Source: an uncultured Elusimicrobia bacterium (GTDB taxonomy: Bacteria > Elusimicrobiota > Elusimicrobia > Elusimicrobiales > UBA9959). From it: a DNA stretch of 36,474 nucleotides. Position 1 is the stretch's first letter, and every line of letters starts with the position of its first letter. The position numbers and the translations under genes are program-made. The stretch covers positions 1 to 36,474 of the forward strand of contig CAIRNJ010000044.1 in NCBI GenBank assembly GCA_903879915.1, read 5' to 3'. Below the pieces are notes generated by a model. It saw only the letters and a program-made list of their open reading frames with translations, searched no databases and was not told the origin of the DNA. Below, piece after piece: positions 25,389 to 30,688 of this stretch.

Positions 25389-26137
25389 TAGACATTAAAA
25401 CCCCGCGGGAACTGGACAGCATGCGCGCGGCTTCGCGCGCGGTGGCGAGCACGCTGGTCCTGCTTAGAAGTCTGGTGAAGCCGGGCGTCAGTACCGCCGA
25501 GCTGGACAGGTTCGCCGGGAAGCATCTGCGCGAACTGGGCGCGGCGCCGGCCTTCCTCGGCTACCGCGGTTATCCGGCCACTCTCTGCGTTTCTATCAAC
25601 GAAGAAATTGTGCACGGGATCCCGAGCGAAAAGCGGATCGTTCGCGAGGGCGATATCGTCAGCCTCGACCTGGGCGCTATCTGCGAAGGCTTTTACGGGG
25701 ACGCCGCCCTGACCGCGGCGGCCGGAAAGATCTCCGGCGCGGCGCGCCGGCTGATGGAGGTCACGGAACTTTCGCTGGCCAGAGCCCTGGAGCAGGTCAA
25801 GCCGGGCGCGCGCCTGGGCGACGTTTCCAACGCCGTCGAACGCTGCGCGGCGGCCAACGGCATGGCGGTGGTCCGGGAGTTCACCGGGCACGGGATAGGG
25901 CGGAGGCTTCACGAGGAACCCTCCATCCCCAATTTCGGAAGGGCCGGAACGGGGCCGGTGCTGAAGGCCGGGATGACGCTGGCGATAGAGCCGATGCTGT
26001 GCCTGGGCCGGCCGGAGATAGTGATAAAGAACGACGGCTGGACCGCGGTGGCCGCGGACGGCAGCCTGGCCGCCCACTACGAGCATACGGTGGCCGTCAC
26101 CGAGAACGGCTTTGAAATTCTGAGCGCTGCGGTATAA
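25385..26137 (+). CDS. map: Methionine aminopeptidase, type I
   Basis: A 250-residue enzyme that removes the initiator methionine from new proteins. The five metal ligands fit the type I pattern: D95, D106, H169, E202 and E233, with the substrate histidines H77 (VHGIPS) and H176 (RRLHEEP). There is no N-terminal extension. The ATG lies in a four-base overlap with adk. A TTGAAA/TATAAA pair near its 3' end (26112-26138, 15-base spacer) could drive infA in addition to the box at 26167. Confidence 0.97.
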   Translation: MIDIKTPRELDSMRAASRAVASTLVLLRSLVKPGVSTAELDRFAGKHLRELGAAPAFLGYRGYPATLCVSINEEIVHGIPSEKRIVREGDIVSLDLGAICEGFYGDAALTAAAGKISGAARRLMEVTELSLARALEQVKPGARLGDVSNAVERCAAANGMAVVREFTGHGIGRRLHEEPSIPNFGRAGTGPVLKAGMTLAIEPMLCLGRPEIVIKNDGWTAVAADGSLAAHYEHTVAVTENGFEILSAAV

Positions 26138-26166
26138 AAGTAACGAGCGGAGAGCGGCTTATTTTG

Positions 26167-26172
26167 TATAAT
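26167..26172 (+). promoter_or_regulatory. Internal -10 box for infA, leaderless arrangement
   Basis: A perfect TATAAT (26167-26172) ends eight bases before the infA ATG at 26181. The intervening ATATAAAT has no Shine-Dalgarno. This would let infA and the genes after it be transcribed apart from the main operon promoter. Confidence 0.55.
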
Positions 26173-26180
26173 ATATAAAT

Positions 26181-26402
26181 ATGTCAGAAAACAGCGAAAA
26201 AATAGAGATCGAAGGCATCGTGAAGGAGTCGCTTCCCAATGCCACTTTCAGGGTGGAAATCTCTCCGGGCAAGACAATTCTGGGGATAATCTCCGGTAAA
26301 ATGCGCATCCATCATATCAAGATCCTCCCCGGAGACAAGGTCCGTCTTGAACTTTCTCCCTACGATTTGAGCAAGGGCCGGATAGTGTACCGCGAAAAAT
26401 GA
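26181..26402 (+). CDS. infA: Translation initiation factor IF-1
   Basis: A 73-residue S1/OB-fold protein that occupies the A site during initiation. Conserved parts are [36 protein letters not shown] and the ending [11 protein letters not shown]. It has no Shine-Dalgarno, unlike nearly all its operon neighbours, and a consensus TATAAT sits just before it, so at least some mRNA may begin at the start codon. This is notable for an initiation factor gene. Confidence 0.96.
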
Positions 26403-26436
26403 TCCGGGCCGGTTTTTTATAAAAGAGGTGCTTTAA

Positions 26437-26550
26437 ATGAAAGTAAGGGCCAGCGTAAAGAAGATCTGCAATAAGTGTACCATCGTCAAGCGCAAGGGCG
26501 TCGTGCGGGTTATCTGCGGAGACCCGCGCCATAAGCAGCGTCAGGGATAA
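26437..26550 (+). CDS. rpmJ: 50S ribosomal protein L36
   Basis: A 37-residue L36, the smallest ribosomal protein. It starts [14 protein letters not shown] and has the zinc site C11, C14, C27 and H32 (CGDPRH), so it is the zinc-containing form. AGAGGTG precedes the ATG. The 123 bases that follow hold no gene; a GGAACT/AGTTCC hairpin and a TGAAGCTTCA palindrome are visible there. Confidence 0.96.
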
Positions 26551-26673
26551 TTTAAGTGTTGAAGAGCCGGGGAACTGAAGCGCCGAAGTTCCGAAAACTC
26601 TTTTCAGCCGCGGTAAAAATTAAATGAAGCTTCAGGTCTCGGGCGCTCAAGAACTGAATTCCAAGGAGAGGTT

Positions 26674-27072
26674 ATGGCACGAATAGCGGGCGTTGATTTG
26701 CCCAAAGAAAAAAAATTACGCGTAGCTCTGGCCAATGTTTTCGGCATAGGCCGGCCGCTGGCGGAAAAAATACTCGAAGGGCTGAAGAACCAGATCTCGA
26801 TAGATATCAGGGTCAAGGACCTCAACGAGGACCAGGTGGGTCTTCTGAACTCGGTGATCGCCAAGGAATACAAAGTTGAAGGCGAGCTCCGCCGGGAAAT
26901 TACCGCCAACATGAAGCGGTACGTGGAAATAAACAGCTATCGCGGCTACAGGCACAGAAGGAACCTTCCCGCCCGCGGCCAGCGCACCCGCACCAACGCC
27001 CGGACCCGCCGCGGCAGAAGGCGCACGGTCGGAGCGGCCGCGAAAGCGGCGCCCGCGGCAGGAGCGAAATAA
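26674..27072 (+). CDS. rpsM: 30S ribosomal protein S13
   Basis: A 132-residue S13 of the head and subunit bridge. It begins [15 protein letters not shown] and has the conserved [26 protein letters not shown] region, here split only for description: positions about 94-119. The C-terminal tail ([13 protein letters not shown]) is Ala/Lys-rich. AAGGAGAGG precedes the ATG. Confidence 0.96.
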
Positions 27073-27087
27073 CCGGAGGGCCGGTTC

Positions 27088-27116
27088 CGGCGGCAGCCGG
27101 TAAAAGGCTGCCGCCG
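27088..27116 (+). other. Strong intergenic hairpin between rpsM and rpsK
   Basis: An 11-bp perfect stem CGGCGGCAGCC/GGCTGCCGCCG with loop GGTAAAA fills the short gap. It lacks a following T tract, so it is unlikely to end transcription; it may be an RNA-processing or protein-binding site. Confidence 0.6.
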
Positions 27117-27145
27117 CGGATTTAGAGCAGAATAAGGAGAAAGTT

Positions 27146-27577
27146 ATGGCAGAAGAGAACAAAGGCCCGCAACCCCAGGACGGGACCAAGAAGATGGAGC
27201 AGAAACCCCAGGCGAAACGCCGCTTCCGCACGGTAGCTTTCGCCCGCGTTTACATAAACTGCTCTTTCAATAACACGCTTATCACCTTTACCGACGAGAA
27301 AGGCAATGTCATCGCCTGGTCTACCTCCGGCGGCAACGGTTTCAGGGGCACCAAGAAAGGCACCCCTTTCGCGGCCCAGATAACGGCTTCGAAGGCTTCC
27401 GCCCGCGCCGCCGAATACGGCGTGAAGCAGGCCATGGTGCTGGTGAGCGGCCCCGGCCCCGGCCGCGAGACCGCGATACGCGGCATCGCCGCCAGCGGCA
27501 TCCACGTGGTTTCGATCAAGGATATCACGCCCATCCCGCACAACGGCTGCAGGCCGCCCAAGGCGCGCAGAGTTTAA
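27146..27577 (+). CDS. rpsK: 30S ribosomal protein S11
   Basis: A 143-residue S11 of the platform. The core includes CSFNNTLITFTDEKGNVIAW, GFRGTKKGTPFAAQ and the C-terminal ITPIPHNGCRPPKARRV. The first 25 residues are a hydrophilic Lys/Gln/Pro-rich extension, about 15 longer than in E. coli. AAGGAG precedes the ATG. Confidence 0.97.
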   Translation: MAEENKGPQPQDGTKKMEQKPQAKRRFRTVAFARVYINCSFNNTLITFTDEKGNVIAWSTSGGNGFRGTKKGTPFAAQITASKASARAAEYGVKQAMVLVSGPGPGRETAIRGIAASGIHVVSIKDITPIPHNGCRPPKARRV

Positions 27578-27582
27578 TAACC

Positions 27583-27637
27583 GCGGACGGTGGACAGTGA
27601 AGCACTGAACACTAACCGCTGACCACTAACCGCTAAG
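27583..27637 (+). repeat. Imperfect inverted array of 7-base units between rpsK and rpsD
   Basis: The right side is five tandem heptamers: CACTGAA, CACTAAC, CGCTGAC, CACTAAC, CGCTAAG (27603-27637). The left side holds two to three units in roughly opposite sense: GCGGACG, GTGGACA, GTG (27583-27599). The arms can pair around AAG as CAGTG/CACTG with further matches in seven-base register. The array ends just before the T7GGAGG that serves rpsD. Its origin is unknown; such units may recur elsewhere in the genome. Confidence 0.6.
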
Positions 27638-27655
27638 TATTTTTTTGGAGGATCA

Positions 27656-28288
27656 ATGTCGAGATATACCGGACCCAGCTGCAAGAAGTGCCAGAAGCTC
27701 AGCCAGAAAATGTTCCTTAAAGGAACGAAGTGCTTTACCAACTGCCTTGTCGACCGCCAGAAAGCCGTTAAAGAAAAACGCTTTACTTCCGGCCCCAGGA
27801 ACAAAATGTCGGACTACGGCAAGCATCTGCGCGAGAAGCAGATAGCCCGCCTTACCGCGCAGATCGGCGAGACCCAGTTCCGCCGCTTCTTCACGAAGGC
27901 CACCAAGGACAAGGGCCAGACCGGCGAAGCGCTGCTGCGCTTCCTCGAGGTCAGGCTCGACAACATCGTCCGCCGCATGGGTTTCGCGGTCTCGCTGAAA
28001 GCCGCGCGCCAGCTCGTGAACCACGGGCACATCAAGGTCAACGGCCGCTGCGTCGACATCGCGTCCTGCCTGCTTAAGCCGGGCGACGAGGTCTCGATAG
28101 ATCCCAAGGCTTTGGATACCGTTCTGGTCAAGCAGGGCCTCGAGCACGCGGAGAAGACCGCGCAGCGCCCCAGCTTCATCTCCTGGAACGCCGCCGCGAA
28201 GTCGGGCAAACTGGTGCGCTGGCCGGACCGCGCGGAGTCAAGCATCTCCGTCGACGAGCAGCTCATCGTAGAATACTATTCCAAGTAA
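27656..28288 (+). CDS. rpsD: 30S ribosomal protein S4
   Basis: A 210-residue S4, an early 16S-binding protein. The S4 RNA-binding domain (about 97-160) includes RLDNIVRRMGFA and ARQLVNHGHIKVNG. The N-terminus has four cysteines, C9, C12, C26 and C30, a zinc-binding (C+) form with CxxC plus CxxxC spacing. GGAGG (27647-27651) precedes the ATG. In E. coli S4 represses the alpha operon. Confidence 0.97.
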   Translation: MSRYTGPSCKKCQKLSQKMFLKGTKCFTNCLVDRQKAVKEKRFTSGPRNKMSDYGKHLREKQIARLTAQIGETQFRRFFTKATKDKGQTGEALLRFLEVRLDNIVRRMGFAVSLKAARQLVNHGHIKVNGRCVDIASCLLKPGDEVSIDPKALDTVLVKQGLEHAEKTAQRPSFISWNAAAKSGKLVRWPDRAESSISVDEQLIVEYYSK

Positions 28289-28303
28289 GCGAGGTTTCAA
28301 CTA

Positions 28304-29281
28304 ATGGCCACTTTCACTAAGCAGCTGGTAATTCCCGAGATACTCAGCGTAGAGGACAAGTCGAAAACGGAGAACTACTCCAAGTTCACCGCCGAGCCTT
28401 ACGAAAAAGGCTACGGGCACACGATCGGCAACTCACTGCGCCGCATCCTGCTGTCCAGCCTCGACGGCGCGGCCGTGGTGGCCGTGCGCATAAAAGGCGC
28501 CCGGCACGAATACGCCGCCATCAACGGCGTGCAGGAGGACGTGGTCAACATCGTCCTGAACCTGAAGAAACTGCGCGTGCGGCTCAAGGGCGAAGGGCCC
28601 GAGACCGTCCTGATCTCCGTTAAAGGGAAAAAAGAAGTGAAAGCCTCCGACATCCGCGAGAACGCCAACGTCGAGATCATCAACAAGGATCTCGTGATAG
28701 CGCACGTGGAGTCCGGCGCCGAGTTCGAAGCCGAACTCGAGATCTCCAGCGGGGCCGGCTACCTGACCTCCGAGGAGATCCGCGGCCGCATGAACCTGCC
28801 GGCCGACTTCATCCCGATGGACGCTATTTTCTCGCCCATACAGAAGGTCCACTATACCGTGGAGAACGCCCGCGTGGGCCAGCGCACCGACTACGACAAG
28901 CTCGTGCTCGAGGTCTGGACCGACGGCACGCTCAGCCCGTCCGACGCGGTGAGCCGCACGGCCGCGCTGCTGCGCCGCTCGATAATGCCGTTCCTGCCGC
29001 CCGAAGAATCGGCCAAGGAACCCGCCAAGGCGAGCGAATCCGCCAAGACCGAAGCCGGCGGGGAACTGACCGGCAAGCTCGACCAGGGCGTGGACATGAT
29101 AGAGCTTTCTTCGCGCGCCTCCAACTGCCTTAAAGTGGCGGGCATCCGCACGATAGGCGAGCTGGTAAGGAAATCGGAAGGCGACCTGCTGGCCGTAAAG
29201 AATTTCGGGCAGAAGTCCCTCGACGAGATCAAGGACAAGCTCAAGGAAATGGGCCTCGACCTCGGGATGAAGATAGATTAA
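28304..29281 (+). CDS. rpoA: RNA polymerase alpha subunit
   Basis: A 325-residue alpha subunit. The N-terminal domain (1-230) that starts core assembly has GYGHTIGNSLRRILLSS (36-52). A Lys/Ala/Glu-rich linker covers about 232-260. The C-terminal domain (261-325) contains ELSSRASNCLKV; R271 and N274 match E. coli R265 and N268, which bind UP elements. The ATG follows rpsD by 15 bases with a GCGAGG ribosome-binding site. Confidence 0.97.
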   Translation: MATFTKQLVIPEILSVEDKSKTENYSKFTAEPYEKGYGHTIGNSLRRILLSSLDGAAVVAVRIKGARHEYAAINGVQEDVVNIVLNLKKLRVRLKGEGPETVLISVKGKKEVKASDIRENANVEIINKDLVIAHVESGAEFEAELEISSGAGYLTSEEIRGRMNLPADFIPMDAIFSPIQKVHYTVENARVGQRTDYDKLVLEVWTDGTLSPSDAVSRTAALLRRSIMPFLPPEESAKEPAKASESAKTEAGGELTGKLDQGVDMIELSSRASNCLKVAGIRTIGELVRKSEGDLLAVKNFGQKSLDEIKDKLKEMGLDLGMKID

Positions 29282-29306
29282 AACGCGGTTTTAAGAAGGA
29301 ACGTTT

Positions 29307-29648
29307 ATGATAAAAAATCTGGGTTCAAGCAAGTTAGGGATGAACGGCTCGCACCGCAAAGCCATGTTCTGCAACATGACCACCAGCCTCCTGATGCACG
29401 AGAAGGTGGAGACCACGCTCCCGAAAGCCAAGGAGCTGGTGCGGTTCGCCGACCGCGTCATCACCGACGCGAAGAACGGGCGCCATATCGAAGTGCGCCG
29501 CGTGATCAAGGACAAGACGGTCTATCATAAAGTGTTCGACGTCCTGGCGCCCCGCTACAAAGAGCGGGCCGGCGGCTTTACCCGCATATTGAAGCTCGGT
29601 CAGCGCAAGGGCGACGCCGCCGAAGTGGCGCTGGTCAAACTGGTGTAG
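29307..29648 (+). CDS. rplQ: 50S ribosomal protein L17
   Basis: A 113-residue L17. It shows [20 protein letters not shown] near the start, [21 protein letters not shown] in the middle and [25 protein letters not shown] at the end. AAGGAA precedes the ATG. mreB begins two bases after its TAG, with no terminator. Confidence 0.97.
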
Positions 29649-29650
29649 GA

Positions 29651-30688
29651 ATGTTCGATTATTTTTTCAGCCTGTTCTCGAACGACATCGGCATAGACCT
29701 GGGCACCGCGAATACCCTGGTCTATGTCAAAGGCAAGGGCATTGTATTGCGCGAGCCTTCGGTGGTCGCCATCGACAAGAACAGGCGCAAAGTGCTGGCG
29801 GTGGGGGCGGAGGCCAAGCTGATGCTGGGCCGGACCCCCTCCAACATCACGGCCGTGCGCCCGCTCAGGAACGGCGTTATCGCGGATTTCGAAGTTACGC
29901 AGGAGATGATAAAGTATTTCATCCGCAAGGTGCACAACCGGCGGAGCCTCCTGCATCCCAGGATAGTGATAGGAATTCCCTCGAGCATTACTGAAGTTGA
30001 GAAGCGCGCCGTGCAGGAGTCGGCGGAGCAGGCCGGCGCGCGCGAAGTGCTGCTTATAGAAGAGCCCATGGCGGCCGCCATAGGTTCGGACCTGCCCGTG
30101 TCGGACCCGCACGGAAGCATGATCTGCGACATAGGCGGCGGTACCACCGAAGTGGCCGTCATTTCGCTGGGCGGCATGGTAGTGACCAATTCCATCGACG
30201 TGGCCGGCGACGAGATGGATGACTGCATAGTCCAGTTTTTCCGGCGCAAGCATAACCTTGTAATAGGCGAAACTACAGCGGAAGAGGTAAAGATACAGAT
30301 AGGTTCCGTTTTCCCGTTGAAAGAAGAAAAGACCATTGAAGTGAAAGGCAGGGACCAGGCCAAGGGCCTGCCCAAGACGATTCTTGTGACTTCGGAAGAA
30401 ATAAGGCAGGCCCTGATGGAGCCTGTCCAGCTTATCGTGGACGTGATCAAGCAGGTGCTGGAAGAGACGCCGCCGGAACTTTCCTCTGACCTCGTGGACA
30501 GGGGCATGGTGCTGGCGGGCGGGGGTTCGCTGCTGCGCGGCTTCCCCGAGCTCATCCGGCAGGAAACAGAGTTGCCCGTCCACAGGGCTGCCGATCCTCT
30601 TAGCTGTGTCGCCTTGGGCTGCGGTAAGTATCTTGAAGAGCTGGATAAGATCCAGCAGAGGCCCGAATTCCTGAAGCCTTACCGCTGA
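29651..30688 (+). CDS. mreB: Rod shape-determining protein MreB
   Basis: A 345-residue bacterial actin that forms membrane-bound filaments guiding lateral wall synthesis. The phosphate-1 loop is [18 protein letters not shown] near the N-terminus, the second loop is [14 protein letters not shown], and the C-terminal adenosine motif is [12 protein letters not shown]. The opening [13 protein letters not shown] is an amphipathic membrane-binding segment. There is almost no room for a Shine-Dalgarno, since it starts two bases after rplQ, so it is probably translated and transcribed with the ribosomal genes. Confidence 0.97.

What the first reader, a model, noticed from the sequence alone, without database searches (positions are those of the whole stretch)
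27583..27637. Seven-base periodic inverted repeat inside the alpha operon
Five tandem CRCTRAN heptamers face two to three units in roughly inverse orientation across a three-base loop, between rpsK and rpsD. Tandem heptamers in inverted arrangement are unusual inside such a conserved operon and may be a copy of a dispersed small element or an array expanded by slippage. In E. coli S4 represses its operon upstream of rpsM, so a regulatory role near rpsD is conceivable but unproven.
Basis: seen in the sequence. Interest (0 to 1): 0.5.

Follow-up and report, generated by a model that had tools for sequence, protein, structure and literature searches.

The report
Seven-base repeat hairpin before rpsD
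A short stretch of seven-base repeats that folds back on itself sits between two ribosomal-protein genes; it belongs to a scattered kind of spacer repeat already known in other bacteria and very common in some relatives of this one, where the same gap often holds a similar repeat spelled with different letters.

Summary
Five 7-mers (27603-27637) face a 17-nt arm (27583-27599) across a 3-nt loop between rpsK and rpsD of an Elusimicrobiota genome. The period-7 signal is modest for the whole window (1 of 100 shuffles reaches it) but strong for the gap (0 of 2000), and the RNA folds better than all 200 shuffles (z -3.5). The array is identical in one sister genome and eroded or absent in the next relatives. 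It is one case of dispersed, often inverted heptad arrays that fill gaps in many, not all, genomes of the family. In ten further relatives the same gap holds a heptad array, clear or degenerate, mostly with another word, which argues against an S4 site. No + strand terminator, Rfam match or excess Shine-Dalgarno occlusion was found. Most likely it is a slippage-born, self-folding, stop-rich spacer tolerated in the mRNA; a passive stability role is untested. Precedents exist in Geobacter, Xanthomonas and Beggiatoaceae, the last also upstream of S4. Apparently new are the variety of words (53 among 108 sampled arrays) and word changes at fixed gaps of ribosomal operons.

The parts
27146..27577 (+). 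rpsK (30S ribosomal protein S11), upstream gene
   Evidence: NCBIfam NF003698.1 and TIGR03632.1 over cut-off
27583..27599 (+). 5' arm GCGGACGGTGGACAGTG, two to three degenerate heptads
   Evidence: sequence; pairs with 27603-27619 in the MFE fold
27600..27602 (+). three-base loop AAG
   Evidence: MFE fold
27603..27637 (+). five tandem CRCTRAN heptads (CACTGAA CACTAAC CGCTGAC CACTAAC CGCTAAG); each holds a TGA or TAA, together in all three frames
   Evidence: sequence; period-7 scan; stop positions
27640..27646 (+). run of seven T between array and Shine-Dalgarno
   Evidence: sequence; no terminator-like site on + strand
27647..27651 (+). Shine-Dalgarno GGAGG of rpsD; predicted to pair with the last heptad, but not more than in shuffles
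27656..28288 (+). rpsD (30S ribosomal protein S4), downstream gene
   Evidence: NCBIfam NF003717.0 and TIGR01017.1 over cut-off

Best explanation
It is one copy of a dispersed class of degenerate, often inverted heptanucleotide arrays that occupy intergenic gaps in many Elusimicrobiota. Shown: the array, the predicted hairpin, the same kind of element with other words at the same gap in relatives, a preference for co-directional gaps, and enrichment of stop codons in the words. Inferred: a 7-nt word expands by replication slippage in a gap; fold-back copying or matching expansion gives the opposite arm; such arrays survive because each unit brings a stop codon in shifting frames and because the arms tend to pair with each other and leave the downstream Shine-Dalgarno free. 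In the alpha-operon mRNA it is a self-closed hairpin spacer. It may passively shield or separate cistrons as REP hairpins can; a specific regulator is unlikely.
For: Array and fold. Sister genome G002 with an identical run of array plus upper stem, at 6.4% third-position divergence. Gap in 58 family genomes: inverted heptad arrays with other words in G041, G063, G032, G031, G043, G033, G035 (clear) and G042, G011, G064 (degenerate, judged by eye); of 54 gaps folded, 27 are at least 36 nt long and 9 of these have a period-7 score of 17 or more, G000 and G002 included. Class: in the first 200 kb of G043:C10 45 period-7 arrays against 0-11 for other periods 4-14 and 0 in a Markov control. Over seven array-rich genomes 72 of 206 co-directional gaps against 13 of 74 other gaps hold arrays (p=0.005), and 97 of 108 array words hold a stop codon on one strand or the other, against a shuffled mean of 75, maximum 89. 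Array gaps fold more strongly: median z -2.66, 38 of 66 at or below -2, against -1.58 and 45 of 119 without arrays. SD pairing is below most of its shuffles in G041, G043, G032, G063 (57, 60, 58 and 56 of 60 shuffles as high or higher). Prior descriptions of intergenic heptad arrays: PMC2700814, PMC4692102, PMC4679880.
Against: In the own genome strict arrays of this word occur only here, so 'dispersed' rests mainly on relatives. The window is array-poor (1 in 36 kb). G002 keeps the array but its lower stem is changed and its fold is not exceptional (z -1.08). Arms of the class are not unit-by-unit mirror images: best in-phase complementarity 0.72 against 0.68 for the next in-phase shift, 26 pairs, which does not favour simple inverted duplication. 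Slippage itself was not observed: the only close pair has equal copy number. In the window itself the SD is not freed (0.82 paired). The contigs sampled were chosen because they carry ribosomal operons, so densities may not be genome averages.
Confidence: 0.62

Rival explanations
1. A specific translational control site of rpsD or the alpha operon, for example bound by S4 or by an unknown RNA-binding protein.
For: It lies 19-73 nt upstream of rpsD; the SD GGAGG is predicted to pair with the last heptad with probability 0.76-0.99 at four of its five bases; Beggiatoaceae also have heptad repeats upstream of S4, read by their author as possible regulator sites (PMC4679880).
Against: The word changes between relatives at the same gap; most of the genus has a short gap without any array; SD pairing is as high in 19 of 60 shuffles; no Rfam match; the fold is weaker in G002.
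Confidence: 0.12
2. An intrinsic terminator or attenuator: hairpin followed by seven T.
For: Hairpin and T-run are both present, and T-runs before the SD recur in several relatives' gaps.
Against: The hairpin ends at 27619, 20 nt before the T-run; the scan finds no terminator-like site on the + strand; rpoA and rplQ follow in the same direction; across seven array-rich genomes arrays prefer co-directional gaps.
Confidence: 0.08
3. A mobile palindromic element of REP/REPIN type moved by a Y1 transposase.
For: Y1_Tnp gene counts correlate with heptad-pattern counts over 59 genomes (Spearman 0.45, p=0.0004) and all 15 array-rich genomes have Y1 genes. Relatives share words, and some elements at the same gap across genera.
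Against: 34 of 44 array-poor genomes also have Y1 genes. Only 1 of 20 Y1 loci has a heptad array beside it, and I saw no clear one at the 2 read before; several Y1 genes are flanked by other inverted repeats. The correlation ignores shared ancestry. No target-site duplication or clean empty site was seen.
Confidence: 0.12
4. Ordinary chance repetition in one gap.
For: At window level the period-7 score is matched in 1 of 100 shuffles, and in 23 of 100 for any period 4-14.
Against: 0 of 2000 gap shuffles and fold z -3.5; same architecture at the same gap in several other genera.
Confidence: 0.05

Closest known systems
Paired tandem heptad and octad sites of Geobacter metallireducens ('predicted global regulator binding sites', classes 1-3; PMC2700814, passages and supplement legends read)
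   Same: Pairs of short tandem arrays on opposite strands, in intergenic places; class 3 is five tandem heptads of consensus MTYCTGA, which fits the CTRANNN pattern; the proBA gap holds such a pair in one species and a different repeated sequence in the sister species.
   Different: One consensus per class and 8-24 pairs per class there. Here each gap may have its own word and the arms are more degenerate. No regulator is known in either.
GGGAATC / GGGGAYT heptad repeats of Xanthomonas and Nostoc (PMC4692102, passages read)
   Same: Intergenic degenerate heptad arrays; in Xanthomonas 70-75 close convergent pairs per genome that could form stem-loops.
   Different: G-rich, quadruplex-forming word; tandem GGGAATC is absent from the window.
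TAACTGA direct repeats of marine Beggiatoaceae (PMC4679880; abstract, sections 3, 9, 16 and passages read)
   Same: Intergenic heptads with stop codons in every frame, many just upstream of start codons, including upstream of S4 and other ribosomal genes; rotated, the word is CTGATAA, of the CTRANNN kind.
   Different: Nearly always direct, not inverted; a single fixed word, which is absent from the window; SDs are rare there, present here.
Cyanobacterial STRR heptads (recalled, not read)
   Same: Several tandem heptad words in intergenic DNA.
   Different: Words differ; not compared here beyond one motif search.
REP/REPIN palindromes (recalled)
   Same: Intergenic hairpins in mRNA.
   Different: Not built on a 7-base period, and tied to a Y1 transposase; see membership test.

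Membership tests
Intergenic heptanucleotide tandem repeats (the general kind) | Several head-to-tail 7-nt units in an intergenic region | tested here: met
   Five units at 27603-27637 in the 78-nt rpsK-rpsD gap
Intergenic heptanucleotide tandem repeats (the general kind) | Dispersed in the genome | tested here: inconclusive
   One strict array in the own genome plus a one-mismatch array at tuf-rpmG; abundant in relatives
Paired opposite-strand heptad sites (Geobacter class 3 type) | Two arrays on opposite strands, consensus MTYCTGA | tested here: inconclusive
   Opposed arms present, but only roughly inverse; the consensus was compared by eye only
TAACTGA repeats | Direct repeats of TAACTGA | tested here: not met
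   No TAACTGA on either strand of the window
GGGAATC repeats | Tandem GGGAATC | tested here: not met
   No tandem pair on either strand of the window
REP/REPIN with Y1 transposase | Element adjacent to its Y1 transposase gene | tested here: not met
   1 of 20 Y1 loci has a heptad array nearby
Intrinsic terminator | G+C-rich hairpin directly followed by a U run | tested here: not met
   None on the + strand in 26000-29800
Known ribosomal leader RNA of Rfam | Match at gathering score | tested here: not met
   0 matches in the window; only 4 sub-threshold, unrelated matches in 27000-28300

The most novel reading that the evidence does not exclude
Gaps inside ribosomal and other operons of these Elusimicrobiota act as fixed slots for inverted heptad arrays whose word can be replaced wholesale between close relatives while slot, 7-nt period and hairpin form persist. 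Either an unknown generator writes heptad palindromes, or a word-independent structural role of the hairpin is under selection.
Probability: 0.25. Interest if true: 0.75.

Novelty: new variant of a known kind. Interest (0 to 1): 0.42.

Why it matters
By itself the array is a modest spacer repeat. As an entry point it shows genomes with up to about one heptad array per 1.7 kb of sampled sequence, even between essential ribosomal genes, with words that change between relatives. That makes the old question of why 7-nt repeats are favoured in bacteria testable by comparison of close strains.

Tried and rejected
Own-genome dispersal of the exact word: strict patterns find only this array; with two mismatches there are 8 own-genome matches, 3 of them this array and at least two others (L191, L192) apparently within coding sequence. 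The reversed-pattern control of the genome searches is not neutral, because arrays such as AGTGAAA fit it too.

S4-specific regulation, terminator, Rfam leader: not supported. SD occlusion looked attractive in the fold but failed the shuffle control. Y1 transposase as driver: a positive correlation, but its loci lack heptad arrays. Reverse transcriptase as driver: 8 of 15 array-rich genomes have no RVT_1 match. Central motif AAGGARYTCCTT: strict form in 7 of 72 array gaps against 3 of 134 others, so not general, and absent here. Arms as exact inverted duplicates: not supported. The first gap extraction skipped reversed loci and was replaced. In one search the gene calls for the G+C-rich window and G002 misassign neighbours; one search used only seven array-rich genomes of lower G+C and left out G025, G033, G011, G058, the window and G002. 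One search left out 4 of 58 gaps (G031, G036, G026, G025) whose rpsD start was not placed by the script. The tree used 29 of the 30 loci.

Full report
WHAT IS THERE. The window is one contig of an Elusimicrobiota genome (G000:C44); the closest named relative is the Lake Pavin MAG with contig JAPLKJ010000274.1, S4 99% identical. Between rpsK (27146-27577) and rpsD (27656-28288) lies a 78-nt gap. It holds a 17-nt arm, a 3-nt loop, five CRCTRAN heptads, seven T and the Shine-Dalgarno GGAGG. The MFE fold has 13 pairs in three short helices parted by two 2x2 internal loops, which gives the hairpin a roughly 7-nt rhythm. A second small hairpin pairs the last heptad with the SD.

CHANCE. Period 7 reaches 20 of 28 matches; 1 of 100 dinucleotide shuffles of the window does so at period 7, 23 of 100 at some period from 4 to 14, and 0 of 2000 shuffles of the gap. 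The gap folds at z -3.50, 0 of 200 shuffles as good. The tandem signal alone is therefore not remarkable for 36 kb; the combination with the hairpin and the relatives is.

RELATIVES. Pattern CNSTRAN x3 hits 7 of 21 genomes and the same array in G002. Against G002, third codon positions differ by 6.4% and the listed intergenic gaps by 32 of 744 positions; an uninterrupted run through the arm and all but the end of the last heptad is identical. At that background a run of about 45 unchanged bases is expected by chance about one time in seven (my arithmetic), so constraint is not shown. S4 was found in 58 of 59 family genomes, and the gap was read in all 58. In the window's genus most gaps are 25-50 nt and without an array. 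G049, sister to G000 and G002 in a tree of S11, S4 and RpoA, has a hairpin (z -2.36) with an eroded period (score 15); G004 and G008, next in the tree, have no array. In other genera the gap holds inverted heptad arrays with other words: GGTAACC-like in G041, G063, G032, G031; CCCTAAC-like in G043; CTCTACC-like in G033 and G035; degenerate in G042, G064 and, in the window's genus, G011.

THE CLASS. STRANNN x4 hits 25 of 59 family genomes, from 1 to 506 matches; CTRANNN x4 hits 58 of 294 phylum genomes and 36 of 90 genera. A word-free scan finds period 7 in great excess: 45 arrays in 200 kb of G043 against 11 or fewer at any other period from 4 to 14, of which 14 is a harmonic. Sampled densities per 100 kb: G031 58, G032 58, G041 48, G042 30, G043 21, G033 20, G063 17, G058 10, G025 9, G066 5, G002 3, window 3, G011 0; these contigs were picked because they carry ribosomal operons. 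Over seven array-rich genomes, 72 of 206 co-directional gaps of 60-400 nt hold arrays, against 10 of 34 convergent and 3 of 40 divergent ones (co-directional against the rest p=0.005). So the shortage is mainly in divergent gaps. 108 intergenic arrays use 53 words; 97 words hold a stop codon on one strand or the other, shuffled mean 75, maximum 89.

RIBOSOMAL OPERON SLOTS. With a period-7 score of at least 17, arrays fill 8 of 23 examined operon gaps in G043, 9 of 24 in G041, 6 of 25 in G042, 9 of 25 in G031, 7 of 17 in G032, 3 of 10 in G063, 3 of 21 in G066, 0 of 25 in G011, and 1 of 25 in each of G058, the window and G002. Within genera, 19 same-gap word comparisons gave 10 with at most one difference and 9 with more; between genera 11 of 59 had at most one; random word pairs 15%. 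So words are partly inherited and partly replaced. The consensus words are short and some are poor (for example low-complexity ones), so these numbers are rough.

HOW IT MOST LIKELY WORKS. Slippage at 7-nt steps is the most economical source; a preference for 7 nt is discussed in the literature as a polymerase property (PMC4692102 and PMC4679880, citing earlier work; passages read). Each unit in the window carries TGA or TAA, and because 7 is not a multiple of 3 they fall in all frames; arrays of this kind can end a reading frame but hardly lengthen one, as argued for TAACTGA in PMC4679880. In strongly arrayed gaps the arms pair with each other and the SD is less paired than with shuffled upstream sequence (G041, G043, G032, G063). 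In the window itself SD pairing is 0.82 against a shuffled mean of 0.72, with 19 of 60 as high. I therefore favour a tolerated, self-closed spacer hairpin; a passive stabilising role is possible and untested.

ALTERNATIVES. A terminator is not supported. No Rfam family matches. Y1 transposase counts correlate with heptad-pattern counts, but the genes often carry other inverted repeats and have a heptad array beside them in only 1 of 20 cases. Reverse transcriptases are missing from 8 of 15 array-rich genomes.

PRIOR WORK. Geobacter metallireducens has paired opposite-strand tandem heptad and octad sites, one class of consensus MTYCTGA (PMC2700814, passages). Xanthomonas has 70-75 convergent heptad pairs per genome (PMC4692102, passages). 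Beggiatoaceae have TAACTGA heptads upstream of S4 and other ribosomal genes (PMC4679880, abstract, sections 3, 9 and 16 and passages). Searches for Elusimicrobia with tandem repeats and intergenic (three papers listed, none on this by title and abstract) and for heptamers in metagenome-assembled genomes (none) gave no description of these arrays; this covers only the held open-access library. Mazel's STRR and Elhai's small dispersed repeats are recalled, not read (not held).

Noticed in passing
window 27089-27115: A strong G+C-rich hairpin (10-nt arms GGCGGCAGCC / GGCTGCCGCC) lies in the rpsM-rpsK gap, just upstream of the gap in question (seen).
   Followed up: no
window, rpmJ-rpsM gap (about 26551-26673): A possible eroded repeat of CTGAAGCG / CTTCAG units; relatives G043 and G042 have clear period-8 CTTCAGCG-like arrays in the same gap.
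   Followed up: partly
L186 (G000:C23), tuf-rpmG gap: A second heptad hairpin candidate in the own genome, CGCTGAA CGCTGAA CACTGGA, directly before what reads as rpmG after what reads as tuf (genes named by eye); also in G002.
   Followed up: partly
G041, G043, G042 Y1 transposase loci (L212, L242, L243, L245): Y1 transposase genes are flanked by palindromes such as AAAAAGGTAGC..GGTACCTTTTT, a separate REP-like family.
   Followed up: partly
G043 and G032 sampled contigs: Besides period 7, period 8 arrays are also in excess (9 in 200 kb of G043, 8 in 40 kb of G032).
   Followed up: no
L145 (G025): A heptad array together with a GTGGAGGTTTTT stretch that holds the Shine-Dalgarno appears duplicated before one gene.
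   Followed up: no
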